50,082 bases of DNA from positions 1 to 50,082 of IMG/VR virus record IMGVR_UViG_3300049448_000781; one strand, given 5' to 3'. A program made the translations under genes and the position numbers. Of the stretch, positions 19,624 through 41,286 are shown piece after piece. This DNA is from a virus. The first letter of the stretch is position 1; the number at the start of each line of letters is the position of its first letter. The notes beneath the pieces were generated by a model. It made no database searches, was not told where the DNA came from, and saw only the letters and a program-made list of their open reading frames with translations.

Positions 19624-19638
19624 TTGCCGCTAACTGAC

Positions 19639-19691
19639 TTGCTTACCCCCTCACTGGCCTATATATGATACGGAGTGACCCAAAATGGATA
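19639..19691 (+). promoter_or_regulatory. Promoter and operator of the XRE-type regulator
   Basis: TTGCTT (19639-19644), 17 bases, TATATG (19662-19667) form a promoter whose start site would fall near 19674. Immediately after it, GACCCAAAATGGATA (19677-19691) matches the dyad found in the spacers of other promoters of this phage and overlaps the ATG of the regulator at 19685. A protein bound here would block transcription start or elongation of its own gene. Confidence 0.6.
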
Positions 19692-19924
19692 CAATGTTGA
19701 AACCCCCGACGAAGCGCCCCAACAAGCTGAACGCGGCCACCCTGGTCGCATGGCGTGACCGCATGGGCTACTCGCAGCGCGATGCCTGCATCGCCTTGGG
19801 GTGTTCGCGGGGCGCGTGGTCAACCTGGGAGAACGGCACCCACCACGTGCCGCGCTACATCGGCCTTGCCTGTGCCGCGCTGGCGCTGGGCATGACCACT
19901 TACGGCGACGATAGGAGCGTGTGA
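19685..19924 (+). CDS. XRE-type helix-turn-helix regulator
   Basis: A 79-residue DNA-binding protein. LVAWRDRMGYSQRDACIALGCSRGAWSTWENG (about residues 21-52, quoted here in part: YSQRDACIALGC and AWSTWENG) is a classic Cro/C1-type helix-turn-helix. The short size and position with its own operator at the start codon suggest a repressor; it is the best candidate to bind the TAYCCA-N3-TGGRTA sites elsewhere in the window, which is an inference. It ends in a TGATG overlap with the next gene. Confidence 0.8.
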   Translation: MDTMLKPPTKRPNKLNAATLVAWRDRMGYSQRDACIALGCSRGAWSTWENGTHHVPRYIGLACAALALGMTTYGDDRSV

Positions 19925-20454
19925 TGACGGTGATGTTTGCCTACGGTTCAAACCTGAACCTTGACCAGATGGCGCGGCGCTGCCCCGACGCGGTGGCGCT
20001 GGGCAGGCTGCGGCTGGCTGATTGGCGGCTGGTGTTCCGGGGCGTCGCCGACTGCATCCCCGAGCCGGGCGCGGTCTGCTACGGCGGGGTCTGGCGCATC
20101 ACGCCGCGCTGCGAGGTGGCGCTGGATGCTTACGAAGGAATCGCATCGGGGCTGTATCGTAAAGAATACGTGCCGATCAAGCGCACCCGCGAGGGTGAAA
20201 CCGAGATGCTGATCTACATGATGAACAGCACCGGCATCATGCCGCCGAGCCAAGGCTACCTGAGAACCATCCGCGAGGGTTACCGCGACTTCCGCATGCC
20301 CAAGATTGCCCATAAGGGGCTGGACGAGGCGGTGCGGGACTCCTGGGACGATAAGGCGCCAACGCACATCGAGCGTCAGCGCCACCGCCGCAAGGGGCGG
20401 CCGCAGCTTGCGGCCTATCCCACGCCACCGGCCATGCCAGCGACCGGGCTATAA
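19924..20454 (+). CDS. Gamma-glutamylcyclotransferase-like (GGCT-fold) enzyme
   Basis: A 176-residue protein with the GGCT/AIG2-like signature: FAYGSNLNLDQM at residues 5-16 (the YGSN nucleotide/substrate loop), the central strand RLVFRGVADCIPEPG, and the catalytic acid context LDAYEGIASGLYRKEYVPI. GGCT enzymes release 5-oxoproline from gamma-glutamyl amines. Paired with the amidoligase two genes upstream, the likely theme is making and removing gamma-glutamyl or similar amide links on a peptide or small molecule. ATG at 19924 (TGATG coupling) is preferred over GTG at 19921. The last 25 residues are basic and Pro-rich. Confidence 0.8.
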   Translation: MTVMFAYGSNLNLDQMARRCPDAVALGRLRLADWRLVFRGVADCIPEPGAVCYGGVWRITPRCEVALDAYEGIASGLYRKEYVPIKRTREGETEMLIYMMNSTGIMPPSQGYLRTIREGYRDFRMPKIAHKGLDEAVRDSWDDKAPTHIERQRHRRKGRPQLAAYPTPPAMPATGL

Positions 20455-20477
20455 ATCACGCTGGCTTATAGGAGACC

Positions 20478-20723
20478 ATGATGACCATGATTGAACTGAG
20501 CAAGATCGTTTCGGACCGCGACTTTCGCAATGACAGCGACGAGGATGTCGCGCAGCAAGCCCCGGTGACCACACCGGTTTCGATCAACGTCGCGGCGATC
20601 CGCTGCTACTATCCGCGCCGCAACGATCGCCCTGGCAGCCGCCTCACCTTCACCGACGGCGGCGGCTTCGCGGTCAGCGAGTCTTACGACGAAGTGAGTG
20701 CCCTGCTGCACCGGGCGAGCTAA
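20478..20723 (+). CDS. Small hypothetical protein (FlbD-like pattern)
   Basis: An 81-residue protein preceded by a TAGGAGA ribosome site. Its second half, VSINVAAIRCYYP followed by GSRLTFTDGGGFAVSESYDEV, has the strand-strand-helix pattern seen in FlbD-like small proteins (lines of 'I-N-x-x-x-I ... T-x-L-x-x-G ... V-x-E-S-x-x-E-V'), which are frequent in phage genomes without known role. Last gene of the tightly spaced amidoligase cluster; a 167-base gap follows. Confidence 0.7.
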   Translation: MMTMIELSKIVSDRDFRNDSDEDVAQQAPVTTPVSINVAAIRCYYPRRNDRPGSRLTFTDGGGFAVSESYDEVSALLHRAS

Positions 20724-20856
20724 CCTAAGCGGCAGCCGCCCGCGCCCCGGGACTCCTTCCCGCTCGGCGCTGCCCGGTCAGGGCCGTCGTCCCCTTGGCG
20801 GGGGGCGGCGGCCCGTCGCCGTTCTGTCATGCAACCAAATCGGCCGCGCCGCGTTC

Positions 20857-20880
20857 CCTAGCGGGTTCAACCCCGCTAGG
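20857..20880 (+). promoter_or_regulatory. Hairpin overlapping the ribosome site of the 20891 gene
   Basis: CCTAGCGGG (20857-20865) and CCCGCTAGG (20872-20880) form a perfect 9-bp stem with loop TTCAAC. The 3' arm contains the first part of the ribosome site (CTAGGAG) of the gene starting at 20891, so the folded mRNA should hide it. No T-run follows, which argues against a simple terminator. The rest of the 20724-20890 gap shows no other clear signal. Confidence 0.6.
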
Positions 20881-20890
20881 AGATGTCCAC

Positions 20891-21100
20891 ATGCCAACCG
20901 ACAACCGGGCAGCCGCCCAGGGCCTACTCGCCGCGCTGGATAAGATAGGGTCGGTTGCTGACGATCCGGAACAGGTGAAGCGGGCCGTCGCGGACGCCAG
21001 ACGCGCCGTGGAGGCGTGGCGCGATCAGGGCGGCGCCTACCAGCCGGAACACAACCCCCCGCCGCCACCCACGCAACAGCGCCAGACGATGCCGGGATAA
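20891..21100 (+). CDS. Small hypothetical protein, helical with Pro-rich tail
   Basis: A 69-residue protein beginning MPTDNRAAAQGLLAALDKI. Residues 5-52 are predicted helical (ADDPEQVKRAVADARRAVEAW), and the C-terminal 18 residues are rich in Pro and Gln. The ribosome site AGGAG lies ten bases upstream inside a strong hairpin. The stop is two bases before the end of the convergent Mu-F-type gene. No family recognised. Confidence 0.65.
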   Translation: MPTDNRAAAQGLLAALDKIGSVADDPEQVKRAVADARRAVEAWRDQGGAYQPEHNPPPPPTQQRQTMPG

Positions 21101-21101
21101 A

Positions 21102-21989
21102 CTACTCGGGGATCACCGGCAGCGCGGTGCAACGGCAGTTCCAAATCTGGCCGGGGTGGCTGTGGTGATCCGGCGGGTCCGACAGCGGTGGGGCGTCCCA
21201 CCGCTGGACGCTGCCGTGCAGCTTGCGATGGCTTTCCCGCACCTTCCAGTCCTTCGCGGTATACCAAATGTAACTTTCGGCACCGATATGCGTGCTGCGG
21301 GCCTGCACCAACACGGACGCGGTGCGGGCCGTCTCGGTCCGCGCGATCAGCGTGGCGCGGTTGCGCAGCCACTTTTCCGTCGCGTGCGGCGTCGCCTTGG
21401 CCAGCGCCTCGGCGAGTTCGGTGCGCGGTGGCGGGGTGCGGGTCCATCGCCCGCGTTCCGGGTCCCAGCCTGACTCGATCGCGGTCTTTTCCTCATAGCG
21501 ACGGCCAGCTTCCAGCGCCTGCAACGACTGCTCATGCACCCAGCTTGCCGCCTCGCGCGGCAACGAGGTGATCAGGTGCACCTGATCCGCCATCAGCCGC
21601 TGCACCTCGGCGCCGATCGGTGCCTCGCGCAGTTCCTGCCGCAGCGCGGCACTCATGCCCCGGGTGTATTGTTCCCACGCGGTTTTATCGCGCCGGTTGG
21701 TTTCCGCGATCATCCGCCACGACACCGCCTGCGCCCATGGCTCGATCGCCTCGGCATAGTTGTCCAGCGCGTCGGTGATCGCCGGTATCTCATGCGGCTC
21801 GATAAAGCCCAGATCGCCGCTGTCGGTCAGCGCCTCAATGATCCGCACCACCTGTCGCGCCAGATGCCGCAGTTGGGCTGCGAAGCTGGTTTCCGCATGG
21901 CGGGCTTTGAAGAACCCGCTGTGACGCGGTTCCTCGGCGCGCTGACGGCGGCGTCGCTCGCGCCATTCCTCGGCATTCTCGCGCGCCAC
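21102..21989 (-). CDS. Mu gpF-like minor head (morphogenesis) protein
   Basis: A 295-residue protein. The N-terminal two-thirds are helical; the C-terminal part carries the Mu-F/SPP1 gp7 signature: ATLIARTETARTAS near residues 212-222, then WYTAKDWKVRESHRKLHG, and HPGQIWNCRC near the end, where the His and Cys residues are typical. These proteins bind the portal and are needed for capsid assembly or DNA delivery. The gene follows the portal gene by three bases, the standard order terminase - portal - Mu-F. Confidence 0.85.
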   Translation of the reverse strand: MARENAEEWRERRRRQRAEEPRHSGFFKARHAETSFAAQLRHLARQVVRIIEALTDSGDLGFIEPHEIPAITDALDNYAEAIEPWAQAVSWRMIAETNRRDKTAWEQYTRGMSAALRQELREAPIGAEVQRLMADQVHLITSLPREAASWVHEQSLQALEAGRRYEEKTAIESGWDPERGRWTRTPPPRTELAEALAKATPHATEKWLRNRATLIARTETARTASVLVQARSTHIGAESYIWYTAKDWKVRESHRKLHGSVQRWDAPPLSDPPDHHSHPGQIWNCRCTALPVIPE

Positions 21990-21992
21990 GGC

Positions 21993-23636
21993 TCAAGCCC
22001 GTTCGCGGCGATACCAGTTGATCCCGCGCACCACGCTGTCGCTGTCGCCACCAAACTCGTCGCCACCGCGTTTCTCCCCTGGCGGCTTAGGCACGGGCGG
22101 CGCGCCCGCCCCTGGCATCCCTGGGGGCTTCATCATGCCCGGTGGCCCACCCATGCCCGGTGGCCCGCCCATGCCGCCCATGGCCGCCATATCGCCCGGG
22201 TCGGGCTGTTCCCAGGGCGGCGGGGCTTCTTCGCTGTCCTTGATGTCTTGGTCGGTGATGTTGGTGAACCGGCCGGTCATGATGGAACTCTGCTTGAGTT
22301 CCTTCAGCGCCATCGTGGTCGAGATGATCCCGGCGCCATGCGCCTGCACCACCGTCGCCACGTCGCGCTCCGCGAGTTCGGCTTTCTCGGTTTCGTCTAG
22401 TTGCCGCAGCGAGTTGAATGTGAACCCGAACGTATCGGGCGGCTCGGTGCCCAGCGCGCTGCGGTGCACCACCTCAAACACCCCGGTCAGCGGCCGTCGC
22501 AGCCGCGCTTCCTGGGCGGCGCGGATCATGTCGTAGTATTGCCGCAGATCGGACTCGCCACTGGAATTCAACCCGGCGGGCGACTGGCCGAATAGTCTAA
22601 CAAGGGGAATCCCTAACGCGCCGGAAATCTGCTGTCCCAGCGCCATGATGGTGTCCGATACGCCAGCGAACGAATATGACAGCGCCTCAAATTCGTCCTC
22701 GCTGTCGATCACCGTCATGCCGTTATTGCTTTGCAACCACCGCATGGCGTCCATCGACTGGTAGAAACCCTGCAACGGGTTGGGCATACCGGTCGGCGAC
22801 TGCGCCGGGTTGCCCGCCATCGCCGCGAGTTGTTTGTATCCCTTCACCTTGTAAACTCTGAGATAGGCGCGGAACAGCAGTTCGGCGGCACCCATCGTGC
22901 CAGAATCAAACGCCAACAGACGATCGTATAGACGCTCGATCACCGACATGCCCCAGCCGTTCTCGGCCAGCTTTTGCCTGAAAGGCAAAGTAACCCCATC
23001 CATCCTGACACAACGGGTGTAATGGATGGTCATCTTCGGCATGAACGGCGCGTTGGCGACCACTTGATAGAACACCGGCAGGCCATAGTCGGGACCGAAA
23101 TCCTGCACCAACACGTTGTAGCTGGGCTGGATCATCCACCGGTCGAGCGTCAGGAACCCCTTGAGTTGATCCTTTGCGATCGATTCTTTGACTAGCGGCG
23201 TCGCCATGTCCTGCCCGTCGATCAGCATGACCATCAGGCAGCCGCCATAGAGGCGCGACCATTTCACCGTCTCATTGAGCGATTGCCACAGGCACAGGTC
23301 GTTGATCACCTTGTGCAACTGCTCCACGTCGTCCGGGTCCATGTCGCTATTCAACGTGATGCCCGCGCGGGTCATATCATCCGCAACCACATCGACGGCG
23401 GCGCCGATAATCCACGACCCCCGATAGGCCCATTCCATCAGCAGGTTCAGCCGGGTGACCGGGTTGAACGTATGGGTCGAGTGGCTGAGTTGGTTTTGCT
23501 GGCCGAGGCCGATGCGAGCGACGAAATTAGAAATGTTGTCGGTGGTCAGATTGCCCAAATGGTCATTGGACGACCCCGCCTGCACGCGCACGCGCGGCTT
23601 GGCAGCCGGATCGCCGCCGTTGATATGATCAGACAT
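21993..23636 (-). CDS. Portal protein (DUF1073 / Phage_portal_3 family)
   Basis: A 547-residue protein, the usual size of a DUF1073 portal. Recognisable parts are NLLMEWAYRGSWIIGAAVDVVADDM (given in part: AYRGSWIIGAAVDVV), WSRLYGGCLMVMLIDGQD, and the clip/stem region GVSDTIMALGQQISGALGIP followed by VRLFGQSPAGLNSSGESDLR. The C-terminus has a Gly/Pro/Met repeat (GGPPGM units) followed by a charged tail. The portal forms the ring through which DNA enters. Current databases relate this family to the N-terminal part of some Acb1 anti-CBASS fusions; no Acb1 phosphoesterase domain is visible here. Start overlaps the terminase stop by one base. Confidence 0.88.
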   Translation of the reverse strand: MSDHINGGDPAAKPRVRVQAGSSNDHLGNLTTDNISNFVARIGLGQQNQLSHSTHTFNPVTRLNLLMEWAYRGSWIIGAAVDVVADDMTRAGITLNSDMDPDDVEQLHKVINDLCLWQSLNETVKWSRLYGGCLMVMLIDGQDMATPLVKESIAKDQLKGFLTLDRWMIQPSYNVLVQDFGPDYGLPVFYQVVANAPFMPKMTIHYTRCVRMDGVTLPFRQKLAENGWGMSVIERLYDRLLAFDSGTMGAAELLFRAYLRVYKVKGYKQLAAMAGNPAQSPTGMPNPLQGFYQSMDAMRWLQSNNGMTVIDSEDEFEALSYSFAGVSDTIMALGQQISGALGIPLVRLFGQSPAGLNSSGESDLRQYYDMIRAAQEARLRRPLTGVFEVVHRSALGTEPPDTFGFTFNSLRQLDETEKAELAERDVATVVQAHGAGIISTTMALKELKQSSIMTGRFTNITDQDIKDSEEAPPPWEQPDPGDMAAMGGMGGPPGMGGPPGMMKPPGMPGAGAPPVPKPPGEKRGGDEFGGDSDSVVRGINWYRRERA

Positions 23637-25015
23637 CAGTAGGCCATGCGCGACCAGACGCTGATATCGCCCTCGGCCACGAGGTTGAACGCGCGCGAGG
23701 TGGAGTCAACATCATCATCATGTGGCAACTCCGGAAAGCCTTCCAGCATCTGTAGCCAGCGCTCGTTCCACGCGCCGCGCTGCACCAACACGTTGCCCGC
23801 CTCGGCCTGCGCCGAGAACGGCGCGAAGCGGGTGATCTTGTCGCCGGTCTCGGGTGACCACTCGATCGCATAGCCCGCCAGCATCCGCACGAAGGCGGCA
23901 ATCTGCGCCTTGCCTGCTTGGCCCGGGTCCTGCGGGATGCCCACCTTGCAGCCGACGCCGTCCTGCGACGTCATGTTGGCGACCGCGCGTTCCACCTCGG
24001 CGGGGCTGCCCCGGAACCACGTGTGGTCCAGCACCACATAGCGCCCGTCGATGGTGCGGCCGATCTTGGTGGAACAGGTCCAGTCGGGGTCGTTCTCGGT
24101 GGTCTCCACCGTCGCCGCCAAATCCCAGCCGCGCCCGACCTCGGTGATCATCGGGCAAATATCCACGACTTGAATCCAGCGCCGATTGAAATAGAGGCCC
24201 GCCGACGGACGGATGTGCCAGTTGCCGTTGAGCAGCCGTTCGCGTTCCACCTGGGGCAGCATCATCAGGTTGCCGCGATAACCCGGGTCGTTGCGTTCCA
24301 GCGCCGGGTTGTCCGCCAGCTTGGCCGAGATGAAGGTCAGCGACTTGACCATCGCCTTGGTTAGCTTGGGGTGGTCGCGCAGCGCGGCGACCTTGCTGTC
24401 ATACCATTGCAGGGCGTCGTCGTGCCCGCGCACGAAATAGCGCACCACGCCCGAGCGCTCGGGGATCGGATAACCGGTGGCGGGATCGATCCACCATTCG
24501 ATCAGTTGCGCCACCCAGCTACCGGCGTCGGCGTTGCAGGACGCGCGTATATACGGACGTATTCTGGTCGGCGAACGGTTGCGCGACATCAGGTAGAAGA
24601 ATTGCTGCTTGGTGAACGTGGTCAGTTCGTCAAAACACAAACAGCCGATCTGGCTGCCATGCCAGTCCAGCACGGTGTTGTCGTATTCAAGATGCGACAG
24701 CTTGACCATGCCTTTGCCGGGCCAGCGCCACTCCATGCGGTGCGACACCGGGATGCCTCGGGCATGAAAGAACAGCTTTTCCGATTCCGACCACAGCCCA
24801 CCCGGCTTGCGCAGATCGGTGGTATTGCGACGGAACATGACCGAGTCAAAACTCTTAACCTGACTGGGATAGCGCATCGCCTCCAACAGCAGCGCCCAGC
24901 TTTTGCCCGATCCTGCGCTGCCGCCGAAGATCGCTATGTCGGCGTCGCTTTCGAGGAACATGCGCTGCGGCCCCTCTTGCGGGGCAATCGTCGTGCGCTC
25001 AAGCGTGGCACTCAT
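23636..25015 (-). CDS. terL: Terminase large subunit
   Basis: A 459-residue DNA-packaging motor. The Walker A loop is GGSAGSGKS (31-39), Walker B lies in IGCLCFDELTTF (about 120-131) and the coupling/sensor region includes ASCNADAGSWV. The C-terminal RNase-H-like nuclease begins at GRGWDLAAT, continues through DGRYVVLDHTWFRG, and has further acidic residues in GIPQDPGQAGKAQ and PHDDDVDSTSRAFN. ATG at 25015 overlaps the upstream stop by four bases; an in-frame ATG 16 codons further upstream lies inside the previous gene. It docks on the portal encoded directly downstream. Confidence 0.92.
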   Translation of the reverse strand: MSATLERTTIAPQEGPQRMFLESDADIAIFGGSAGSGKSWALLLEAMRYPSQVKSFDSVMFRRNTTDLRKPGGLWSESEKLFFHARGIPVSHRMEWRWPGKGMVKLSHLEYDNTVLDWHGSQIGCLCFDELTTFTKQQFFYLMSRNRSPTRIRPYIRASCNADAGSWVAQLIEWWIDPATGYPIPERSGVVRYFVRGHDDALQWYDSKVAALRDHPKLTKAMVKSLTFISAKLADNPALERNDPGYRGNLMMLPQVERERLLNGNWHIRPSAGLYFNRRWIQVVDICPMITEVGRGWDLAATVETTENDPDWTCSTKIGRTIDGRYVVLDHTWFRGSPAEVERAVANMTSQDGVGCKVGIPQDPGQAGKAQIAAFVRMLAGYAIEWSPETGDKITRFAPFSAQAEAGNVLVQRGAWNERWLQMLEGFPELPHDDDVDSTSRAFNLVAEGDISVWSRMAY

Positions 25016-25227
25016 GCGCGCGGTGTGCCATCGTCCAGTCGTGTGATGGCGACGTTGGCCCACATCGCAGCGGTGCGCAGGTGCCGCATCACATGATCCC
25101 GATCGAGACCGGGTGGCACATGCATCTCAACGAAGCTTGCGAACGTAGCGAATGCCTGCCGAAGATCGGCCATGTCGTCTAGCTGCGCGTCGGTCGGCTT
25201 CAAATATTCAAACGTGTTTCGGTGCAT
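25012..25227 (-). CDS. Acb2-like cyclic nucleotide sponge (anti-CBASS candidate)
   Basis: A 71-residue protein with the pattern of Acb2 (also known as Vs.4 in T4-like phages): TFEYLKPTDAQLDDMADLR at the start, a helical middle, VPPGLDRDHVMRHLRTA, and AAMWANVAITRLDDG at the end. The F-x-Y-x-x-P, P-G-x-D-R and MWAN-x-AI elements are those shared by Acb2 proteins, which form hexamers that soak up the cyclic dinucleotide and trinucleotide signals of CBASS immunity. It is embedded between terminase genes, coupled by TGATG upstream and ATGA downstream. Binding specificity cannot be read from the sequence, and a Tad1-like activity against Thoeris signals is possible. Confidence 0.75.
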   Translation of the reverse strand: MHRNTFEYLKPTDAQLDDMADLRQAFATFASFVEMHVPPGLDRDHVMRHLRTAAMWANVAITRLDDGTPRA

Positions 25228-25502
25228 CACCAGAACCTCTGGTCGGCTTCCATCTGGCGCAGCAACAGCCACAGCAGAATCTTCGCGGTGCCGTCGCCGC
25301 CCCATGACTTGTTGGCTACCAGCGACGCGCGTAGCGCCTCGGTGCTGCCTTCCCACTTGCCGTCAGCGAACAGCGTGATGGCGCAGGGCGGCTCGCCGAG
25401 CGTGATGGTGAACGGATACCACGGCGAGTCCTGTAGCCTGAACGTGCTGGTGACGGTTTCGCCGCTCGGGATCGGGACGAACTTGATCTCCTCATCGCTC
25501 AT
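25227..25502 (-). CDS. Hypothetical protein in the terminase operon
   Basis: A 91-residue protein, MSDEEIKFVPIPSGETVTST at the start, with LQDSPWYPFTITLGEPPCAI and a helical C-terminus TAKILLWLLLRQMEADQRFW. It overlaps the terminase small subunit gene by four bases and the Acb2-like gene by one, so all are surely co-translated. No family recognised. Its place directly upstream of an Acb2-like gene makes a counter-defence or packaging accessory role possible, but this is only context. Confidence 0.7.
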   Translation of the reverse strand: MSDEEIKFVPIPSGETVTSTFRLQDSPWYPFTITLGEPPCAITLFADGKWEGSTEALRASLVANKSWGGDGTAKILLWLLLRQMEADQRFW

Positions 25503-26026
25503 GGATCGGTGCCCGTCGCTGCGGGTGGCGCCTCGGTGGCATCGCCGTCGATGGTCGGTGGCGCGTCGTCCGCCTCGGGCTGGTCGCGGCCGTTGGGCGG
25601 CATGTAGAAATGCACCACATCGTCGTCGCGCGAGGTTTCCGGGTCCGCCCCCGGGGCTTCCTTCGGCACCTGCCACGACGGCCCGCCATGGGTCAGCAAC
25701 CAGAACCGCGCCGCCGCCATGTTGCCCGCCAGCGCTTCCTTCACCACCGTGTAGCCGACGCGGGCAACAATCTGGGCGCGGCCGGTTTTGATTTCTTTCT
25801 TGAAATACTTCACCAGCGTCGAGTGGTGGATATTCAGCGCCTGCGCGATCACTGCCTGAGTGTCGTTATTGGCGGCCAGCACCATCACGGTATGGCGCTG
25901 CTCGTTGGTCGGCACAAAGGCGGGGATACGCCCATTCTCATCACGCTCCGCGCGTGGCTGCCCACGGCTGATCCGCTGGCCGGGATTGAGTTCCACGACC
26001 ACGTCGTCAGGCTGGTTGTCCTCCAT
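25499..26026 (-). CDS. Terminase small subunit-like DNA-binding protein
   Basis: A 175-residue protein with a helix-turn-helix at about residues 40-75 (TNEQRHTVMVLAANNDTQAV, then IAQALNIHHSTLVKYFKKEI), a helical segment VVKEALAGNMAAARFWLLTHG typical of TerS-like proteins, and an acidic Pro-rich tail. Small terminase subunits recognise viral DNA and regulate the motor. Position three genes ahead of terL supports this. Its start overlaps the end of the ParB-methyltransferase gene by 20 bases. The exact family is not certain; a generic HTH regulator is the alternative. Confidence 0.7.
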   Translation of the reverse strand: MEDNQPDDVVVELNPGQRISRGQPRAERDENGRIPAFVPTNEQRHTVMVLAANNDTQAVIAQALNIHHSTLVKYFKKEIKTGRAQIVARVGYTVVKEALAGNMAAARFWLLTHGGPSWQVPKEAPGADPETSRDDDVVHFYMPPNGRDQPEADDAPPTIDGDATEAPPAATGTDP

Positions 26027-27227: not shown

Positions 27228-27273
27228 CGCGGAATTTCCTCAAAAATAATTTGCACGCGGTGGCGTTTTTCGC

Positions 27274-27323
27274 TTGCATCGGTTACCCAAAATGGATACA
27301 AGTTGTCCTGCACACAACGAACC
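27274..27323 (+). promoter_or_regulatory. Early-type promoter with operator dyad and conserved leader (copy 1)
   Basis: TTGCAT (27274-27279), 17-base spacer, TACAAG (27297-27302). The spacer contains TACCCAAAATGGATA (27284-27298), an inverted repeat TAYCCA-N3-TGGRTA. The transcript would begin near the conserved leader GCACACAACGAACC (27310-27323), which recurs at four other promoters. It drives the DUF6011 gene and faces the divergent ParB-methyltransferase operon. Confidence 0.75.
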
Positions 27324-27339
27324 AACCGGAGACCTCGAC

Positions 27340-27954
27340 ATGACCTACCGCGACGCCCTGAACGCCCTGCACGCCGCCCTGCCCACGCTCCCCGCCCGCG
27401 ACGCCGACTTCGCTCAATCCCTGCTGTTGCAGTATACCGCCCGCCAGTCTCTGAGCGAAAAGCAGTGGCACTGGGTGCGCAAGCTGGCGGCCCCTCGGGC
27501 CGCTGCCCCTGCCCCCGTGGTGACCGCCAACGTCGGTGACTTCAGCGCGGTGATCGCGATGTTCGCCACGGCCGCCCAGACGAAGAAGTTCCCCAAGATC
27601 ACGCTGGCGCTGGCCGACGGCCGTGCGGTGGTGCTGAAGGTGGCGGGCGCCCAGTCAGCGCAGCCCGGCACGGTCACCGTGACCGACGGCCGCCCGTTCG
27701 GCAGCAACGTATTTTACGGCCGGGTGGCGCCCTCGGGCGACTGGCAGGTTGCCCGCACGATCGACACTGAGACCGCCACCTCGGTGACCGCCCTGCTGAC
27801 GCGCTTCGCGGCCGAGCCTCTGGCCATCGCGGCCGCCCACGGCCACGCGACGCACCGTTGCTGCTTCTGCAACATCACCCTGACCGACCCCCGTTCCAAG
27901 ACGGCAGGATATGGGCCAATTTGCGCAGGCAAGTTTGGCCTAGCCTGGGGCTGA
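27340..27954 (+). CDS. DUF6011-containing zinc-ribbon protein
   Basis: A 204-residue protein. The C-terminus HRCCFCNITLTDPRSKTAGYG followed by PICAGKFGLAWG is the DUF6011 signature, a small C-x2-C ... C zinc-binding motif found at the end of many phage proteins that handle or bind nucleic acid. Residues 1-50 are helical (LLLQYTARQSLSEKQWHWV) and residues 65-160 form a beta-rich domain (KITLALADGRAVVLKVAG). ATG at 27340 follows a CCGGAGACC ribosome site. First gene of the plus-strand early transcript. Biochemical role unknown. Confidence 0.75.
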   Translation: MTYRDALNALHAALPTLPARDADFAQSLLLQYTARQSLSEKQWHWVRKLAAPRAAAPAPVVTANVGDFSAVIAMFATAAQTKKFPKITLALADGRAVVLKVAGAQSAQPGTVTVTDGRPFGSNVFYGRVAPSGDWQVARTIDTETATSVTALLTRFAAEPLAIAAAHGHATHRCCFCNITLTDPRSKTAGYGPICAGKFGLAWG

Positions 27955-28003
27955 CACCACAGCGGGGGCGACAGCCCCCGCGCCTGTTTCGGGAGGAAAC
28001 CAA

Positions 28004-28267
28004 ATGGGTCATATGATCATCACCGAGGCCGCGCTGGCTGCCATCTGCGCGTTGACCAATCAAAAGATACGCGAGGACGCGGCAATGGAACGTCGAGCGG
28101 ACGGTTTGCTGTATGTGCCGATGCCCGACGATCTCATAGCAAACCTGAACGCCGCGCGGCTTCCAGGGGAGGACGACAGCCAACTGGCGCTGCGCGCGTT
28201 TGAAACGGTAGTTGCCAGACGGCGCACGACCGACGGCGGCCACCGCCGCGCCTCGTTACGCCGCTAG
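28004..28267 (+). CDS. Hypothetical protein, first of a tandem paralogous pair
   Basis: An 87-residue protein, MGHMIITEAALAAICALTNQ at the start, LLYVPMPDDLIANLNAARLPGEDD in the middle and TDGGHRRASLRR at the end. It is a paralogue of the next gene: shared elements are '(I/L)T(E/Q)AAL-A-I', 'VP-x-x-x-x-L-A-x-L', 'GEDDSQ-x-x-LR' and the end 'DGGHR-x-L-RR'. Both are preceded by the identical block TTTCGGGAGGAAACCAA, including the ribosome site. Function unknown. Confidence 0.75.
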   Translation: MGHMIITEAALAAICALTNQKIREDAAMERRADGLLYVPMPDDLIANLNAARLPGEDDSQLALRAFETVVARRRTTDGGHRRASLRR

Positions 28268-28284
28268 TTTCGGGAGGAAACCAA

Positions 28285-28548
28285 ATGCCGCATCTGGTTC
28301 TGACCCAGGCCGCGCTGGACGCGATCTATGAGTTCGGCGACGGCCCGGTCGAAAGCGCCTGCCAGTCACTGCCCGACGGGCGTTGGTGGGTGCCGTTCGC
28401 CGCTGAGTCGCTGGCACGCTTGGACGAAGTGCGCCACGCTGGCGAGGATGATAGCCAAGTCATCCTGCGACTATTTCAACAGGCTCAGATCAACCGCCGC
28501 AGCCGCAGCGCCGACGGCGGCCACCGGCTCGCTGGGTTGCGCCGCTGA
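28285..28548 (+). CDS. Hypothetical protein, second of a tandem paralogous pair
   Basis: An 87-residue paralogue of the preceding gene, starting MPHLVLTQAALDAIYEFGDG and ending SADGGHRLAGLRR, with VPFAAESLARLDEVRHAGEDDSQ (quoted part: LARLDEVRHAGEDDSQ) in the middle. Same length and the same duplicated ribosome-site block upstream. Most identical residues lie in the C-terminal half, so the N-terminal half may bind different partners. Function unknown. Confidence 0.75.
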   Translation: MPHLVLTQAALDAIYEFGDGPVESACQSLPDGRWWVPFAAESLARLDEVRHAGEDDSQVILRLFQQAQINRRSRSADGGHRLAGLRR

Positions 28549-28557
28549 GAGTTGGGG

Positions 28558-28694
28558 TGTCGGACACTTTGCACGTGACGGACGCACACGGCGACATGGC
28601 CCGCCTCCCTACCGTCCCAGGCCCCTTGGGTAGTCATGCTGGGACGCATGGGCAAACCCTGTCCGACAGCAAATCTACAAGGGCAAGGCGGGCC
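28558..28694 (+). ncRNA. Candidate structured RNA or paired operator sites in a gene-free stretch
   Basis: The 28549-28717 gap has three inverted-repeat pairs: TGTCGGACA (28558-28566) with TGTCCGACA (28660-28668); GGCCCGCCT (28598-28606) with AGGCGGGCC (28686-28694); and GTCCCAG (28614-28620) with CTGGGAC (28639-28645). The first two pairs interleave, so an RNA could form a pseudoknot, ending just before the ribosome site at 28705. The first pair is also two copies of a near-palindrome TGTC-S-GACA, so two protein-binding sites are an alternative. A GTG-started frame (28557-28751) crosses the region but lacks a good ribosome site. Confidence 0.35.
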
Positions 28695-28717
28695 GCGTTC
28701 ACCGAGGAGGAAGCACT

Positions 28718-28909
28718 ATGCAACGCGTGCCCGGTTGGTGGCATAGCCTGAACGGCATCACGCCAGCACGGCTGGAAGCGCTGCGACGCGAGGTGGTGCG
28801 GCGTGGCGTCAGCCCGAACGACCGCACTGCGGTCGAGCAAATCCTGCGTCAGCAGTGGCTGGATTATCTGCCACCATTAAAAGCGGAGAAACCGCAGGAC
28901 CCTGGTTGA
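28718..28909 (+). CDS. Small hypothetical helical protein
   Basis: A 63-residue protein after a strong GAGGAGGAAG ribosome site: MQRVPGWWHSLNGITPARLE at the start and a charged helix LEALRREVVRRGVSPNDRTA, then VEQILRQQWLDYLPP. No family recognised. It closes the first early transcript; the promoter of the next gene starts at 28906, overlapping its last codons. Confidence 0.65.
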   Translation: MQRVPGWWHSLNGITPARLEALRREVVRRGVSPNDRTAVEQILRQQWLDYLPPLKAEKPQDPG

Positions 28910-28954
28910 CACTGTTACCCAAATTGGATACATAAGGCGGGCACACAGTGAACC
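28906..28954 (+). promoter_or_regulatory. Early-type promoter with operator dyad and conserved leader (copy 2)
   Basis: TTGACA (28906-28911, consensus -35), 17 bases, TACATA (28929-28934). The dyad TACCCAAATTGGATA (28916-28930) is the most symmetrical copy of the operator. The leader GCACACAGTGAACC is at 28941-28954. Drives the gene at 28970 and probably the block to 31449. Confidence 0.78.
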
Positions 28955-28969
28955 ACGAGGAACCCGCAC

Positions 28970-29233
28970 ATGGCCCAGCATCCCTACTTCACCAAGGTCA
29001 ACGCCAGCGTTAAGGCCGCGTTTCGCGACCGCCCCGGCTTCGTCCCGGTCAAGGCCGACGTGTTCGGCACGTTCGCCTCGCTGCGCTTTGAGGGCGATCT
29101 GCCGGTGTCGCTGCTCACCGACATCGCCAAGCACGTCGAAGCCAACTTCCCCGAGTTCGCCAGCACGCCCGCGACGCGGGTGATGAACTACCAGTTTGGC
29201 GGCTCCGTCATTAACTGGTATCGCAACGCATGA
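28970..29233 (+). CDS. Hypothetical protein
   Basis: An 87-residue protein, MAQHPYFTKVNASVKAAFRD at the start, then VKADVFGTFASLRFEGDLPV and a C-terminal MNYQFGGSVINWYRNA. It looks like a compact alpha/beta protein. First gene after a strong early-type promoter, overlapping the next gene by four bases (ATGA). No family recognised. Confidence 0.72.
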   Translation: MAQHPYFTKVNASVKAAFRDRPGFVPVKADVFGTFASLRFEGDLPVSLLTDIAKHVEANFPEFASTPATRVMNYQFGGSVINWYRNA

Positions 29234-30429
29234 AGCGGCCGCGCCACGGCCGTCGCGCGCCCGAGGACGGCGAAAAGCGGCGGCCCACGCTGGCCGACCG
29301 CTTCATCGCGCGGCGGTGGAGCGACTGGGAGCGCGCGGTGCATCCCAAGACGATCGCCCAGCTTCAGAAATCCGCCCGCGACGCGCGACGCTTCGTACTG
29401 GACGAGGCTGCCACGCTGCGGCTGGCCGAGATCATCGACAGCATCCCCGAGTTGCTGATCCGCGAACACCAGTTCGCCCGCGCCCCCTACGACCTCACCT
29501 GGGTCGAGTTCCCGTCGCATGTCCTGTGGTCCTACATGCACGAGCAACATCCGGAAGCCTATGAGGGGCTGGGGCGGTTCGGCGACCCCGATGCGTCCGA
29601 CCACACGCTGGGCTACCTGATCGACCACGAGCGGGTCAACGTGATCTGCGGCGGCACCGTGGCGGACCCCGATACGCTGCCGCAGATCATGCCGCTGCAA
29701 TATCGCCTGCATACCCCGATGGAGGATGCCGAACAGACCGAGTTCCGCCGCCTGTCGGGCATGACCAGCGAGTGGCACCTGAACGCCTTCCTGTGGGGTA
29801 GCACATACACCCGCCTAAGCCCCGAGGAGCGCGCTGTGGCCACCGACCGCAACAGCGTGGGGTTACTGCCATTGAACCCGCTGCACCCGCTGTATCCCCG
29901 CTACAGCGGCGACGGCGAGTGGTGCGACGCGGTGCGCGGCAGCATCGGCGAGTTGCGCAACATCATCGCCGTTTTATTGGTGCTGAACCGGCCGAGCCTG
30001 ACGAAATACATTCGGTCAAACGAGATGACGCGCGGCTTCCACAAGGGCAAGCTGATGCCATACCTGTCGCACACCGTGGTGACGATCGACCTCGACGCAC
30101 GGCCCACCCTCAAGCTGATCGGCACGCCTGCCGGTGACGCCGAACCAAAGCGTCGCGGCGAGGTGCGCGGCCACTACAAGCACGATGAAACCGCGCGCGA
30201 CTTCAGCCGCATCGCGGGCTGTATCCACGAATATCAGCCGACGCACGGCCCCGACGACGATTGGGCGCCGTGGCCCGATCCGCCGCCCGGTGTGCCGGGC
30301 GATCCCGGCTGCGTCCGCAACTGGGTGTGCGCCGCGTGCGGCGGCAAGCGGTGGTGGCGCCGTGAGACCGGGCGCGGCGACGCGGCCAAGGGCTTCGTGG
30401 TGCATGACGGCTACGATGTTACTGCCTGA
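29230..30429 (+). CDS. Hypothetical phage protein with C-terminal Cys motif
   Basis: A 399-residue protein. Residues 60-290 look folded (DLTWVEFPSHVLWSYMHEQH, ERVNVICGGTVADPDTLPQI, GELRNIIAVLLVLNRPSL). Near the C-terminus are HTVVTIDLDARPTLKLIGTP, GEVRGHYKHDETARDFSRIA and a probable zinc site NWVCAACGGKRWWRRETGRG. The 'R-G-E-V-R-G-H-Y' followed by 'W' and a basic stretch is a pattern I associate with uncharacterised phage early proteins. Function unknown; the CxxC with nearby His could indicate nucleic-acid binding. Confidence 0.72.
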   Translation: MKRPRHGRRAPEDGEKRRPTLADRFIARRWSDWERAVHPKTIAQLQKSARDARRFVLDEAATLRLAEIIDSIPELLIREHQFARAPYDLTWVEFPSHVLWSYMHEQHPEAYEGLGRFGDPDASDHTLGYLIDHERVNVICGGTVADPDTLPQIMPLQYRLHTPMEDAEQTEFRRLSGMTSEWHLNAFLWGSTYTRLSPEERAVATDRNSVGLLPLNPLHPLYPRYSGDGEWCDAVRGSIGELRNIIAVLLVLNRPSLTKYIRSNEMTRGFHKGKLMPYLSHTVVTIDLDARPTLKLIGTPAGDAEPKRRGEVRGHYKHDETARDFSRIAGCIHEYQPTHGPDDDWAPWPDPPPGVPGDPGCVRNWVCAACGGKRWWRRETGRGDAAKGFVVHDGYDVTA

Positions 30430-30445
30430 ACAGGAAAGACCGACC

Positions 30446-30817
30446 ATGACTGTCCGAGCTATGACCGTGAAACGCTACCATCAGGTGCTGGACGCGCTGC
30501 GCCTCAGTCAGCGCGCCCTGGCGCCCTTCCTGGGCTGCTCTGACCGGCTGCCGCGCGCCTGGGGCATGGGCACCCACACCATTCCGCCCGCCGTGGCGGA
30601 CTGGCTGGAAGCCTGCGTCGACAACCGCCGCGCCCACCCTGACCCCCTGCCGCCGACCGAGGAGGAATGGCGGCGTCGCACCGGGGTGTATGATCGGGCC
30701 AAAACGGCCCGCGCACGACGGCGTCGGCTGCATTCGCCACCGCTGGCGCCGCCACGCAAGCGGCCACGCCCGCGCCCAACCAAAGGCATCACTCGGTTAC
30801 CGGGAGAACAGCGATGA
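30446..30817 (+). CDS. Helix-turn-helix protein with basic tail
   Basis: A 123-residue protein. Residues 1-55 (RYHQVLDALRLSQRALAPFL, GCSDRLPRAWGMGTHTIPP) read as a Cro-like helix-turn-helix with the 'S-Q-R-A-L-A-x-x-L-G' core and a substitute for the usual 'W-E-x-G'. The second half is extremely Arg/Pro-rich (RARRRRLHSPPLAPPRKRPR), suggesting non-specific DNA or RNA binding. An AGGAAAG ribosome site precedes the ATG. A second regulator beside the one at 19685, ending in a four-base overlap with the next gene. Confidence 0.7.
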   Translation: MTVRAMTVKRYHQVLDALRLSQRALAPFLGCSDRLPRAWGMGTHTIPPAVADWLEACVDNRRAHPDPLPPTEEEWRRRTGVYDRAKTARARRRRLHSPPLAPPRKRPRPRPTKGITRLPGEQR

Positions 30818-31449
30818 AACGGAAAGCCCACCGCGCCGACCGTGCTGGCGCCATTGATTGGGAGAAGCAACTGCGGTTCGACGTGGAATATGCCAAGGCG
30901 GCATTGTTTGAGATGGGCGGGCTGACGCCGATGTTCATCGTGCACTGTCCCGAGGGGACGCGGGTGTATGCCACGCCGTGGCACAACGAGGGAGAGAAAC
31001 GCGCCACCCAGCGATTGCTGGCGCTGCGCGGTGCGGCCGACGGCGCTGTCGGCATCACCTTCATCGGCGAAGCCTGGATGCTGGTGTTGCAACAGCGGCC
31101 CGGTGAATCGGATGCCGAATACAATGCCCGCGCGACGGCGGTGCCGCCGTCCGAGGCCGAGGAACGGCAAGAGGTGCTGATGGTCACCAGCGAGTTCTAC
31201 GACGCCGACGGCGACTATCAGGCGCTGTCCATCACCCTGGACATCGTGCGCAATGCGGCGGGCAAGATTACCGGCGCACCGCAACGCGGCGGGGTGGAGC
31301 ATGTCGAAATGCGCCACGGCCAGATGCTGGCGCCGACGCCGCCCGACGCCGAACAGCGTCGCATCGCGGGGGCGCTGTATGACCGGATGACCAAGGTGAT
31401 GGGCTTCCAGGCCCAGGTGCAGGTTATCCACCCAGCGGGGCACGCCTAG
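30814..31449 (+). CDS. Hypothetical protein
   Basis: A 211-residue alpha/beta protein. Sections include AIDWEKQLRFDVEYAKAALF, GLTPMFIVHCPEGTRVYATP, AVGITFIGEAWMLVLQQRPG and EERQEVLMVTSEFYDADGDY. I do not recognise a family. It is translationally coupled (ATGA) to the helix-turn-helix gene and ends before the third early-type promoter. Confidence 0.72.
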   Translation: MKRKAHRADRAGAIDWEKQLRFDVEYAKAALFEMGGLTPMFIVHCPEGTRVYATPWHNEGEKRATQRLLALRGAADGAVGITFIGEAWMLVLQQRPGESDAEYNARATAVPPSEAEERQEVLMVTSEFYDADGDYQALSITLDIVRNAAGKITGAPQRGGVEHVEMRHGQMLAPTPPDAEQRRIAGALYDRMTKVMGFQAQVQVIHPAGHA

Positions 31450-31460
31450 CAAAATAACGC

Positions 31461-31509
31461 TTGCATAGGTTACCCAAAATGGATACATAGGCGCTGCACA
31501 CAACGAACC
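31461..31509 (+). promoter_or_regulatory. Early-type promoter with operator dyad and conserved leader (copy 3)
   Basis: TTGCAT (31461-31466), 17 bases, TACATA (31484-31489). Dyad TACCCAAAATGGATA at 31471-31485 is identical to copy 1. Leader GCACACAACGAACC at 31496-31509, also identical to copy 1. Drives the block of very small genes from 31522. Confidence 0.78.
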
Positions 31510-31521
31510 GAGTGAACCCCG

Positions 31522-31803
31522 ATGGCCAACTTTCGCTACTTCGCAGACCTCGCCGACGGCACCACGGTGCAGCTTTCCAACGTGTGGCACGACGGGCACG
31601 TCTCGACCAAGGCGTGCCACTTTTTCGGCACCGCGCCCGACGGCAGCCGCAAGGTGCAGGCGACGCGCGCGATTGAGCGCAAGAGCAACCCTTCCAACCA
31701 CACGTGCGACGCGCGCTGCCTGAACGCTCGGGGCTTCAAGTGCGAATGCTCCTGCGGTGGCAAGAACCACGGTGCTGGCGCCTTTGTCTGCGAGGCGGCG
31801 TGA
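31522..31803 (+). CDS. Small Cys-rich, probably zinc-binding protein
   Basis: A 93-residue protein. The first half is beta-rich (MANFRYFADLADGTTVQLSN); the second holds NHTCDARCLNARGFKCECSCGGKNHGAG, of which CDARC and CECSCGGKNHG are the probable metal ligands. The CxCxCGGxNHG signature recurs in small phage proteins of unknown role. First gene behind promoter copy 3; ends in TGATG with the next gene. Confidence 0.72.
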   Translation: MANFRYFADLADGTTVQLSNVWHDGHVSTKACHFFGTAPDGSRKVQATRAIERKSNPSNHTCDARCLNARGFKCECSCGGKNHGAGAFVCEAA

Positions 31804-31958
31804 TGACCAGCTACCGCCCGACGTGGCGCCCGACCGAGGAACAGAAAGAACGCCATCGCCGGATGCGCCAGCGCCGCGCCACTCTGCGTCGGCAAATCCG
31901 TGCGGCCCAGCTACGCGCGATCACCCAGGCCGCTGCAACCCCCAAGACGGAGAATTGA
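31803..31958 (+). CDS. Small basic hypothetical protein
   Basis: A 51-residue very basic protein (MTSYRPTWRPTEEQKERHRR, then RQRRATLRRQIRAAQLRAI), probably a single helix. It starts in a TGATG overlap. Nucleic-acid binding is likely from charge alone; no family recognised. Confidence 0.6.
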   Translation: MTSYRPTWRPTEEQKERHRRMRQRRATLRRQIRAAQLRAITQAAATPKTEN

Positions 31959-31959
31959 G

Positions 31960-32091
31960 ATGACTTGCCAATGGTTCCTGCGCTGCGAGCGGCCAGCGAC
32001 GACCACGCTGCCGCACCCGATCCTCGGCCCCGTGCCGGTCTGCCAGTGCTGCGCCGACAAGGTGGCGCGGCTGTCCTGCAAGGCGGCCTGA
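31960..32091 (+). CDS. Small zinc-ribbon protein
   Basis: A 43-residue protein, MTCQWFLRCERPATTTLPHP then PVPVCQCCADKVARL. Four Cys in C-x5-C ... C-x-C-C spacing suggest a small zinc knuckle. GGAG lies eight bases before the ATG. Too short for confident family placement. Confidence 0.6.
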   Translation: MTCQWFLRCERPATTTLPHPILGPVPVCQCCADKVARLSCKAA

Positions 32092-32093
32092 CC

Positions 32094-32231
32094 ATGTACA
32101 GCCTTGAATACTGGCTGATGGCTGTCCAGGCCGTCTACGAATCGATGGACTGGGTTGCCGTTATCGTGGTCGCCATTATCGGCACCGCGATCTGTGACCT
32201 GATGACCGGCTTTCTGAAGGTGTTGAGATGA
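32094..32231 (+). CDS. Small single-pass membrane protein
   Basis: A 45-residue protein with one clear transmembrane segment, WVAVIVVAIIGTAICDLMTG, between a short N-terminal helix (MYSLEYWLMAVQAVYESMD) and the end FLKVLR. It begins two bases after the previous stop and overlaps the next gene by four. A holin-like or membrane-anchored accessory role is conceivable; nothing specific shows it. Confidence 0.6.
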   Translation: MYSLEYWLMAVQAVYESMDWVAVIVVAIIGTAICDLMTGFLKVLR

Positions 32232-32500
32232 TCGATTCTAACATCGTTGAACTGTGCCGCGCCTATGCCGACCTGATCTGCGCGGCGCGCAAGCTGCATG
32301 TCGCGTGGGTCCGATCGCCCGGCAACAGCAACTATGGGTCCTGCCTGATCGCAGCGGCGCACAAGCTTTACGGCGCCGCGCCGATCGACGCCATGCCGCA
32401 CCTCGACACCGTCAAGCGGGTGCTGGAAATCGACACCACCATCACCACGGTCAGCGTGGTGTTACTGCGGGCGTCGCTGATGACGGAGGACGCGTCATGA
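32228..32500 (+). CDS. Hypothetical helical protein
   Basis: A 90-residue protein with helices NIVELCRAYADLICAARKLH and LDTVKRVLEIDTTITTVSVV. Coupled on both sides by ATGA overlaps. No family recognised. Confidence 0.65.
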   Translation: MIDSNIVELCRAYADLICAARKLHVAWVRSPGNSNYGSCLIAAAHKLYGAAPIDAMPHLDTVKRVLEIDTTITTVSVVLLRASLMTEDAS

Positions 32501-32691
32501 CCGACGCGTTTACCTGCGCCCGCTGCGGCGGCGTTTTCAACAAGAGATGGTCCGACGCCGAGGCCCTGGCAGAATACCGCGCGAACATGCCCGAGGTGCC
32601 GCCGGATGAGCCGACCGACGTGCTATGCGAGGACTGCTATCAGCGATTCATGGCGTGGCTGAAGGCGCACCCGGAGGAGCGGTTCCGATGA
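32497..32691 (+). CDS. Small zinc-ribbon protein
   Basis: A 64-residue protein with CARCGGVFNKRWSDAEALAE at 7-26 and VLCEDCYQRFMAWLKAHPEE at 44-63: two CxxC knuckles about 35 residues apart, the classical small zinc ribbon of phage early regions. Coupled on both sides by ATGA overlaps. Function unknown. Confidence 0.7.
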   Translation: MTDAFTCARCGGVFNKRWSDAEALAEYRANMPEVPPDEPTDVLCEDCYQRFMAWLKAHPEERFR

Positions 32692-33158
32692 CCGGCGAGT
32701 TCGACTACCTGCTAGACCCCACGCACAAGGCGCCCGAGGTGGTGCTGTCGCGCAAGCCGCCCGAGGCGGTGGTTCGGAAGGTGACGGCGCCGGAAACCGG
32801 TGCGCCGCCACCAACCCCACCCGAACGGCCGGGAGGAAGACCGGTTATTCGGGTTGAGATCGAAATCAACCAGGGCGGCGTCACCCGGGTCAAGCCCGGC
32901 TATTCCGGCCGGGTGGTTCTCGCCGCTGTGATCTGGGTCATCGTGCTGTTGATCCTGGCCACGCTGGCGCGCGCCGAGACGTGGACCTCGCGGCGCGACG
33001 GCTTCATGACGCGCTACCAGAGCGACGATGGCGGCACCGCGCAGTCCTACCAGCAAGGCTTCATGACCTACTATGACCAGACGCTGCCCGACGGCAGCGT
33101 GCGGCACTGCGAGTCCTACCAGCAAGGCTTTCAGACCGTGCTGCGGTGCAATCCCTGA
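32688..33158 (+). CDS. Single-pass membrane protein with repeated SYQQGF motif
   Basis: A 156-residue protein. The N-terminal 75 residues are Pro-rich and presumably cytoplasmic; VVLAAVIWVIVLLILATLA (about 83-101) is a transmembrane segment whose A-R-A end resembles a signal-peptidase site. The outer part has a repeat: GFMTRYQSDDGGTAQSYQQG, FMTYYDQTLPDGSVRHCESY, QQGFQTVLRC, i.e. SYQQGF twice and two Cys that could bridge. A secreted or periplasmic short domain is likely. Its end overlaps a convergent gene by 28 bases. Confidence 0.65.
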   Translation: MTGEFDYLLDPTHKAPEVVLSRKPPEAVVRKVTAPETGAPPPTPPERPGGRPVIRVEIEINQGGVTRVKPGYSGRVVLAAVIWVIVLLILATLARAETWTSRRDGFMTRYQSDDGGTAQSYQQGFMTYYDQTLPDGSVRHCESYQQGFQTVLRCNP

Positions 33159-33355
33159 CGCTCGCGCGTGACGTAAACCGTGCGACTGGATTTGCCCAGT
33201 CTGGCTTCCAACACCTCGTTCAAAGCAATCAGCGCGTCGTCAACCGGCGCGCCTGCCAGCGCCAGATCGACCGCCGCCACGAGGCGCGTTATGCCGTTTG
33301 AGCGACCACGCGCGACATGACGCTCGCGCGCTGGCGTTAGGGTAGCTTCTGACAT
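33131..33355 (-). CDS. Possible small antisense-strand gene
   Basis: A 74-residue frame, RLVAAVDLALAGAPVDDALI followed by ALNEVLEARLGKSSRTVYVT, with natural helical composition and few rare residues. It lies against the direction of its neighbours, overlaps the membrane protein gene by 28 bases at the 3' end, and has only GGGGA as ribosome site. The 33159-33483 stretch holds no other gene, which makes a real gene more likely. Confidence 0.45.
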   Translation of the reverse strand: MSEATLTPARERHVARGRSNGITRLVAAVDLALAGAPVDDALIALNEVLEARLGKSSRTVYVTRERQGLHRSTV

Positions 33356-33483
33356 GCTGGGGTCCCCGTGCGGGTTGGGGTGCGGCGCAAATAGCGCGAG
33401 TGTGGGGAAATTGGTATGACGGCAAATCTGGTGCCGTCAAGCTATTCCGCGCGCTATCCCTTGGATGGGGCTGGGTTTTCGAC

Positions 33484-33546
33484 TTGATGTGGTTCACCAA
33501 TTTGGATACAAGAAACGCGGGCAACAGGCCCGTGCACACAATGAAC
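33484..33546 (+). promoter_or_regulatory. Early-type promoter with operator dyad and conserved leader (copy 4)
   Basis: TTGATG (33484-33489), 17 bases, TACAAG (33507-33512). Dyad TCACCAATTTGGATA at 33494-33508. The leader GCACACAATGAAC is at 33534-33546, here preceded by a small hairpin CGGGC-AACAG-GCCCG. Drives the DUF932 gene. Confidence 0.72.
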
Positions 33547-34488: not shown

Positions 34489-34562
34489 GCGGAGGTAGCT
34501 CAATGGCAGAGTGGTCCGCTTTCCAAGGGACGACGGCGGTTCGATTCCGTCTCTCCGCTCCA
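34489..34562 (+). tRNA. tRNA-Gly (UCC), with a bulged anticodon stem
   Basis: Acceptor GCGGAGG pairs with TCTCCGC, D-stem GCTC/GAGT with loop AATGGCA, T-arm GGCGG-TTCGATT-CCGTC, discriminator T and an encoded CCA (34560-34562). The anticodon arm reads GTCC-g-C, TTTCCAA, GGGAC: a five-pair stem only if one G is bulged, with anticodon TCC. The variable region is then three bases. The identity Gly(UCC) fits GCGG acceptor, AATGGCA D-loop and U73. The bulge may reduce or change function. Confidence 0.75.
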
Positions 34563-38069: not shown

Positions 38070-38114
38070 ACGATCCCCCTGACGTGGTTCCGGCCGAGGT
38101 TGCCCCCGGCCGGT

Positions 38115-40640: not shown

Positions 40641-40694
40641 GGTTCAGAGTGTGCAACGTCCTGTCTTGTTACCCGAAATCGGCACAAATGTAAA
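40641..40694 (-). promoter_or_regulatory. Helicase promoter with conserved leader (minus-strand copy 5)
   Basis: Read on the minus strand: TTTACA (40694-40689), 17 bases, TAACAA (40671-40666), then leader GCACACTCTGAACC (40654-40641). The spacer holds CCGAAATCGG, a dyad in the same position as CCAAAATGG in the plus-strand copies but with changed half-sites, so it may escape or weaken the same repressor. Confidence 0.65.
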
Positions 40695-40749
40695 GGGCGT
40701 TTTTCGTTTTCGGTTGGGTGCCAAAAACGCGCGGAAAAACTCGCGGCTA

Positions 40750-41263: not shown

Positions 41264-41286
41264 CGCTTTCACCCTCTGGTTGTGGC

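What the first reader, a model, noticed from the sequence alone, without database searches (positions are those of the whole stretch)
19677..33508. A phage-wide operator, TAYCCA-N3-TGGRTA, placed in promoter spacers
Sites at 27284, 28916, 31471 and 33494 sit at the same place in a 17-base spacer between recognisable -35 and -10 boxes, and a fifth (19677) overlaps a regulator's start codon. Common placement shows co-regulated early transcription units across the window.
Basis: seen in the sequence. Interest (0 to 1): 0.65.

Follow-up and report, generated by a model that had tools for sequence, protein, structure and literature searches.

The report
Lineage-specific operators in phage early promoters
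An uncultured phage carries copies of one short mirror-image DNA sequence inside five of its early promoters, and related phages carry a different such sequence inside promoters of the same genes, as expected if one small phage DNA-binding protein controls all of them and protein and sites change together.

Summary
Four matches with at most one mismatch stand against 0.09 expected, and four sites lie at one fixed offset in exact 17-bp promoter spacers; the fifth covers the start codon at 19685.

Related uncultured phages carry at least five other operator sequences, most repeated 3-6 times, in or beside spacers upstream of the same early units: first early gene, regulator operon, DUF932 gene, helicase. 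This supports a phage-encoded regulon whose operators are replaced together.

The likely regulator is not the 19685 protein, which sits in a mobile-looking cassette and whose relatives in other phages lack the operator. It is the 123-aa HTH protein at 30446: strong matches occur in every operator-bearing lineage tested, mostly in an operon headed by an operator promoter, and not in three related phages without the operators. It probably acts as a small autorepressor (like Aca proteins) that shuts off early genes. Binding is not shown. This is a new variant of dispersed-operator phage regulons.

The parts
27274..27302 (+). Promoter TTGCAT-N17-TACAAG with operator TACCCAAAATGGATA at 27284-27298; first early gene (27340-27954, DUF6011)
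   Evidence: conserved in near-identical contigs L007, L009, L010, L011
28906..28934 (+). Promoter TTGACA-N17-TACATA with operator TACCCAAATTGGATA at 28916-28930; reads into 28970, 29230 and the HTH gene 30446
31461..31489 (+). Promoter TTGCAT-N17-TACATA with operator TACCCAAAATGGATA at 31471-31485; gene 31522
33484..33512 (+). Promoter TTGATG-N17-TACAAG with operator TCACCAATTTGGATA at 33494-33508; DUF932 gene 33562-34419
40666..40694 (-).
   Evidence: the helicase promoter carries the lineage operator in G019, G023, G024 and G010 too
19677..19691 (+). Operator GACCCAAAATGGATA over the start codon (19685) of the 79-aa HTH gene, downstream of a possible promoter TTGCTT(19639)-N17-TATATG(19662)
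30446..30817 (+). 123-aa HTH protein, best candidate for the regulator that binds the operator
   Evidence: matches at about 1e-25 or better in every operator-bearing lineage searched; predicted HTH fold, pLDDT 88; Foldseek neighbours include Aca1, Aca2, Aca10 and controller proteins
19685..19924 (+). 79-aa HTH protein (HTH_31) in an amidoligase/gamma-glutamylcyclotransferase cassette; probably a target, less likely the regulator
27310..27322 (+). Shared leader GCACACAACGAAC just before the Shine-Dalgarno region; further copies at 28941-28953, 31496-31508, 33534-33546 (+) and 40654-40642 (-)
33516..33534 (+). GC-rich hairpin between the -10 box and the leader of the DUF932 gene

Best explanation
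The sites are operators of a phage-encoded early-gene regulon. A small HTH protein, most likely the 123-aa product of 30446, binds the palindrome as a dimer inside the -35/-10 spacer and blocks RNA polymerase. It thereby turns down its own operon, the first early operon, the 31522 operon, the DUF932 operon, the helicase operon on the other strand, and the 19685 cassette gene. No integrase or resolvase was found, so a timed shut-off of early transcription in a lytic cycle is more likely than prophage immunity. In related phages the same units are controlled in the same way by the orthologous protein through other operator sequences, so operator set and regulator seem to change together. Shown by sequence: the sites, their placement, the orthology of the promoters, and the presence/absence pattern of the regulator. 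Inferred: binding, dimerisation, repression rather than activation, and timing.
For: Enrichment and fixed placement. Own operator classes in relatives, each repeated: G019 GTGGGTCA-N3-TGG x5; G023/G024 TTGACAYRGTGCGCCA x6/x5; G010 TGGCRN3CGCGYATAA x4; G013 TTGACATCYTASGTCAGG x6; G025 GTTACGTGACGG x3. Shuffle means are 0-0.1, and the classes hardly occur in each other's genomes (contexts). Orthologous units carry them: first early gene in window, G019, G023, G024, G013, G027, G014, G025; regulator operon in window, G019, G023, G024, G010, G027, G014, G025, with a variant in G013; DUF932 in window, G019, G023, G024 and, one gene upstream, G010; helicase in window, G019, G023, G024, G010. A4-type regulator: strong match in all those lineages, only weak cross-matches or none in G005, G006 and G020. 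Its putative recognition helix varies between lineages: DRLPRAW, TRLPGSW, DRLTREW, SRLPGTW, YRLTADW, HQLLGKW. Fold like small palindrome-binding repressors. No tyrosine integrase or resolvase match.
Against: No binding or expression data exist. The 30446 protein matches no Pfam, PHROG or NCBIfam family, and Foldseek E-values are only 0.1-1. The 33494 and 40684 sites are degenerate. The 19677 site covers the start of another HTH gene, which looks like autoregulation. In G013 and G014 the DUF932 and helicase promoters carry other sequences, so not all units are shared there; G014 and G011 support rests on one or two sites. The G025 motif is short (three sites against 0.1 expected, one of 100 shuffles reaching two at most). 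Which operator goes with which recognition helix was compared by eye only. All records are metagenomic contigs, possibly incomplete.
Confidence: 0.65

Rival explanations
1. The 79-aa HTH protein 19685 is the repressor: it autoregulates through the site over its start codon and controls the other promoters in trans.
For: Operator exactly over its start codon, with a possible promoter upstream; a recognised HTH_31 domain; it is distantly homologous to the 30446 protein.
Against: Strong matches only in the window, G005 and G006, plus L018 and near-identical contigs; upstream regions of the G005, G006 and L018 relatives lack the site and G005/G006 have none anywhere; the sister lineages with the promoter architecture lack this protein.
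Confidence: 0.15
2. The sites bind an activator or a host transcription factor rather than a phage repressor.
For: Most -10 boxes are only moderately good (TACAAG, TACATA, TAACAA), so an activator could help.
Against: The spacers are already the optimal 17 bp, so a protein bound inside them should exclude polymerase; activators that bind within a spacer (MerR type, own knowledge) use 19-20 bp spacers. Different operators at orthologous promoters of related phages fit a co-evolving phage protein better, though different hosts could also explain it.
Confidence: 0.12
3. The repeats are recently duplicated promoter copies with no dedicated regulator.
For: 27271-27300 and 31458-31487 are 97% identical, and the leaders are near-identical.
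Against: Other copies are 67-77% identical over 30 nt while the CCANNNTGGATACA part stays constant; near-identical contigs differ in flanking bases but not in the site; independent families occur at the same genes in other lineages.
Confidence: 0.06

Closest known systems
Aca (anti-CRISPR-associated) autorepressors such as Aca1, Aca2 and Aca10
   Same: Small HTH protein encoded in the operon it would control; inverted-repeat site within the core promoter (for Aca: PMC9410906); Aca1, Aca2 and Aca10 structures are among the Foldseek neighbours.
   Different: Here at least five promoters on both strands, including the helicase promoter, would be controlled; no Aca family match; no confirmed anti-CRISPR gene: the 29230 family profile finds no AcrVA2 chain among solved structures, although one submitter labelled a homolog AcrVA2.
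Cluster A mycobacteriophage repressor with operators and stoperators (L5, Bxb1)
   Same: One repressor, many dispersed sites, and subcluster-specific site sequences that diverge together with the repressor (PMC6550527).
   Different: Those sites are mostly outside promoters, oriented with transcription, 20-30 per genome and serve prophage immunity. Here most sites are in promoter spacers, about six per genome, on both strands, and no integrase was found.
Phage P1 C1 repressor (own knowledge)
   Same: Operators dispersed over the genome at several operons.
   Different: Temperate plasmid-prophage; P1 operators are asymmetric; no sequence relation was tested.

Membership tests
Aca autorepressor circuit | small HTH protein with Aca-like fold | tested here: inconclusive
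   Predicted HTH fold; neighbours Aca1, Aca2, Aca10 at probabilities of about 0.8-0.98 but E 0.2-1; no family match for 30446
Aca autorepressor circuit | inverted repeat inside the core promoter of its own operon | tested here: met
   28916-28930 within TTGACA-N17-TACATA upstream of 28970-29230-30446; the operon itself is inferred from gene order
Aca autorepressor circuit | operon contains an anti-CRISPR gene | tested here: not met
   29230 family profile A6 finds no AcrVA2 chain at E <= 1; no PADLOC or NCBIfam match
Phage regulon with dispersed operators (cluster A-like) | same operator at several transcription units of one phage | tested here: met
   six sites in the window, 3-6 in relatives
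Phage regulon with dispersed operators (cluster A-like) | operator classes specific to phage lineages | tested here: met
   cross-class counts
Phage regulon with dispersed operators (cluster A-like) | regulator shown to bind the sites | not testable with these tools
   needs gel shift or footprint
Lysogeny (cI-type) immunity system | integrase or other sign of a temperate life | tested here: not met
   no PF00589 or PF00239 match in 10 records, while controls ring; contigs may be partial

The most novel reading that the evidence does not exclude
A clade of probably lytic phages uses one orthologous small HTH regulator to shut off orthologous early units from operators inside the promoter spacers, and the whole operator set has been replaced several times (six classes seen) while promoter positions stayed. 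The series would be a natural experiment in which regulator and regulon-wide binding sites change specificity together, possibly so that co-infecting relatives do not silence each other.
Probability: 0.35. Interest if true: 0.7.

Novelty: new variant of a known kind. Interest (0 to 1): 0.5.

Why it matters
Dispersed phage operators are known from temperate phages. Here the comparison gives six distinct operator classes at orthologous promoters next to orthologous small HTH regulators, in phages with no sign of lysogeny. That makes it directly testable how a regulator and a whole set of binding sites move to a new specificity together. It also gives a reading key for early transcription units in an uncultured phage clade, most of whose genes have no name.

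Tried and rejected
Scans for the exact class A motif in viral contigs returned only near-identical contigs plus isolated single sites (L006, L008). A DUF932 profile found no relative in 84,980 bacterial and archaeal genomes, and a terminase profile only distant ones, so the host is unknown. Protein searches with 29230 and 30446 in viral contigs failed; orthologs were reached through the terminase and DUF932 genes. Anti-CRISPR (AcrVA2) identity of 29230, suggested by one GenBank label, was not supported. The structure of the 19685 protein could not be predicted usefully (pLDDT 52). G005, G006 and G020 were searched for a comparable promoter set: none was recognised in G005 or G020; G006 has a repeated element near gene starts with another layout. 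Reading GCACACAAYGAAC as a transcription start or second operator was set aside: its distance from the -10 varies from 6 to 21 nt, and in G019 the equivalent GCACACACACA also stands before two Shine-Dalgarno sites without any operator, so a translation leader is likelier.

Full report
What was checked. The window is a 50,082-base virus record with portal and terminase genes on the minus strand, early genes of mostly unknown function on the plus strand (27.3-35.7 kb), replication genes on the minus strand (35.8-47.8 kb), and Sipho_Gp157 and ERF genes on the plus strand at the right end. TAYCCA-N3-TGGRTA with at most one mismatch occurs four times against 0.09 expected, and the 33494 site has two mismatches. 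Four sites start at base 5 of an exact 17-bp spacer between TTG-type -35 boxes and TA-type -10 boxes. The site at 19677 covers the start codon of a 79-aa HTH gene.

The same layout occurs on the minus strand: TTTACA-tttgTGCCGATTTCGGG-TAACAA, operator 40684-40670, before the helicase gene. All five spacer promoters are followed by a shared leader, GCACACAAYGAAC or close variants, just before the Shine-Dalgarno region. The DUF932 gene has a hairpin between the -10 box and the leader; hairpins at that place also occur in G019, G025 and, more weakly, G023.

Relatives. Terminase and DUF932 searches brought in uncultured phages that share the order terminase, early genes, 30446-type HTH gene, DUF932 gene, helicase. 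Words repeated between genes were then sought in each, without using the window's motif. Several lineages gave their own element at promoters: G019 GTGGGTCA-N3-TGGCATAA (five), G023/G024 TTGACATAGTGCGCCA (six and five), G010 TGGCRN3CGCGYATAA (four), G013 TTGACATCYTASGTCAGG (six; two in G027), G025 GTTACGTGACGG (three). G014 and G011 carry a weaker relative of the G013 type (two sites and one). In shuffled genomes these words appear 0-0.1 times on average, and they hardly occur in the other genomes. They sit within or next to the -35/-10 spacer of the same units as in the window: the first early gene, the operon of the HTH gene, the DUF932 gene and the helicase, with gaps noted under evidence against.

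Which protein binds. A profile of the 30446 family matches every operator-bearing lineage tested at about 1e-25 or better. In G005 and G006 it finds only weak cross-matches and in G020 nothing; no such promoter set was recognised in these three. The 19685 family is strong only in the window, G005 and G006, plus L018 and near-identical contigs, and its more distant relatives have no operator. In most lineages the 30446-type gene follows an operator-bearing promoter in the same direction, with a few genes between, so autoregulation is likely; G011 was not resolved. AlphaFold gives a helix-turn-helix fold (pLDDT 88). Foldseek neighbours are small palindrome-binding repressors, with modest scores. 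The residues of the putative recognition helix differ between lineages, as expected if specificity changed; this was compared by eye, not tested formally.

Mechanism. A dimer in a 17-bp spacer should exclude RNA polymerase. Since the 30446 gene lies downstream of an operator promoter, the simplest circuit is a burst of early transcription followed by shut-off. No tyrosine integrase or resolvase family match was found in ten records, which speaks against prophage immunity but does not exclude it, because the contigs may be incomplete. Binding and repression are inferred.

Comparison. In logic it works like Aca autorepressors, whose inverted repeats lie in the core promoter (PMC9410906). In breadth and lineage specificity it resembles cluster A mycobacteriophage repressors (PMC6550527). 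It fails the Aca test of an anti-CRISPR partner and differs from cluster A in site placement and in the lack of lysogeny genes. I therefore rate it a new variant of a known kind.

Noticed in passing
window 38091-38127 (+): A strong hairpin (CCGGCCG...CGGCCGG) followed by an exact copy of the leader GCACACAATGAAC lies between two minus-strand genes, without a visible promoter or operator; the same hairpin-leader order as before the DUF932 gene.
   Followed up: partly
L077 20030 (-) and 11440 (-), coordinates of G019: In G019 the leader GCACACACACA stands directly before Shine-Dalgarno sites of two genes without any operator, which suggests a translation leader.
   Followed up: partly
window 34489-34562 (+): One tRNA-like gene; ARAGORN reads a four-base anticodon (ttcc), Rfam scores 44.8 bits; no tRNA was found in the related contigs scanned.
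   Followed up: partly
window 41280-41366: About three 29-bp tandem repeats (TTGYGGYTTGTTGACYTTGTTGSCC) in a stretch without a called gene between replication genes; possibly origin iterons.
   Followed up: no
window 40740-40770 and 40810-40840: 31-bp direct repeat (90% identical) just upstream of the helicase promoter.
   Followed up: no
window 18598-20723 (+): Cassette of amidoligase, HTH, gamma-glutamylcyclotransferase-like and small gene inserted among structural genes; the same set occurs in G005, G006 and L018.
   Followed up: partly
L123 2998-4038: A homolog of 29230 in Planktothrix phage Pag-Yong1 is labelled AcrVA2 in GenBank, but the family profile finds no AcrVA2 chain among solved structures.
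   Followed up: yes
G006 around 8990, 10624 and 14133 (locus L073): Repeated promoter-like unit with a CGGAGCGGCGCTCTCGG inverted repeat near gene starts in a phage with a 19685-type HTH; possibly another regulon with a different layout.
   Followed up: no
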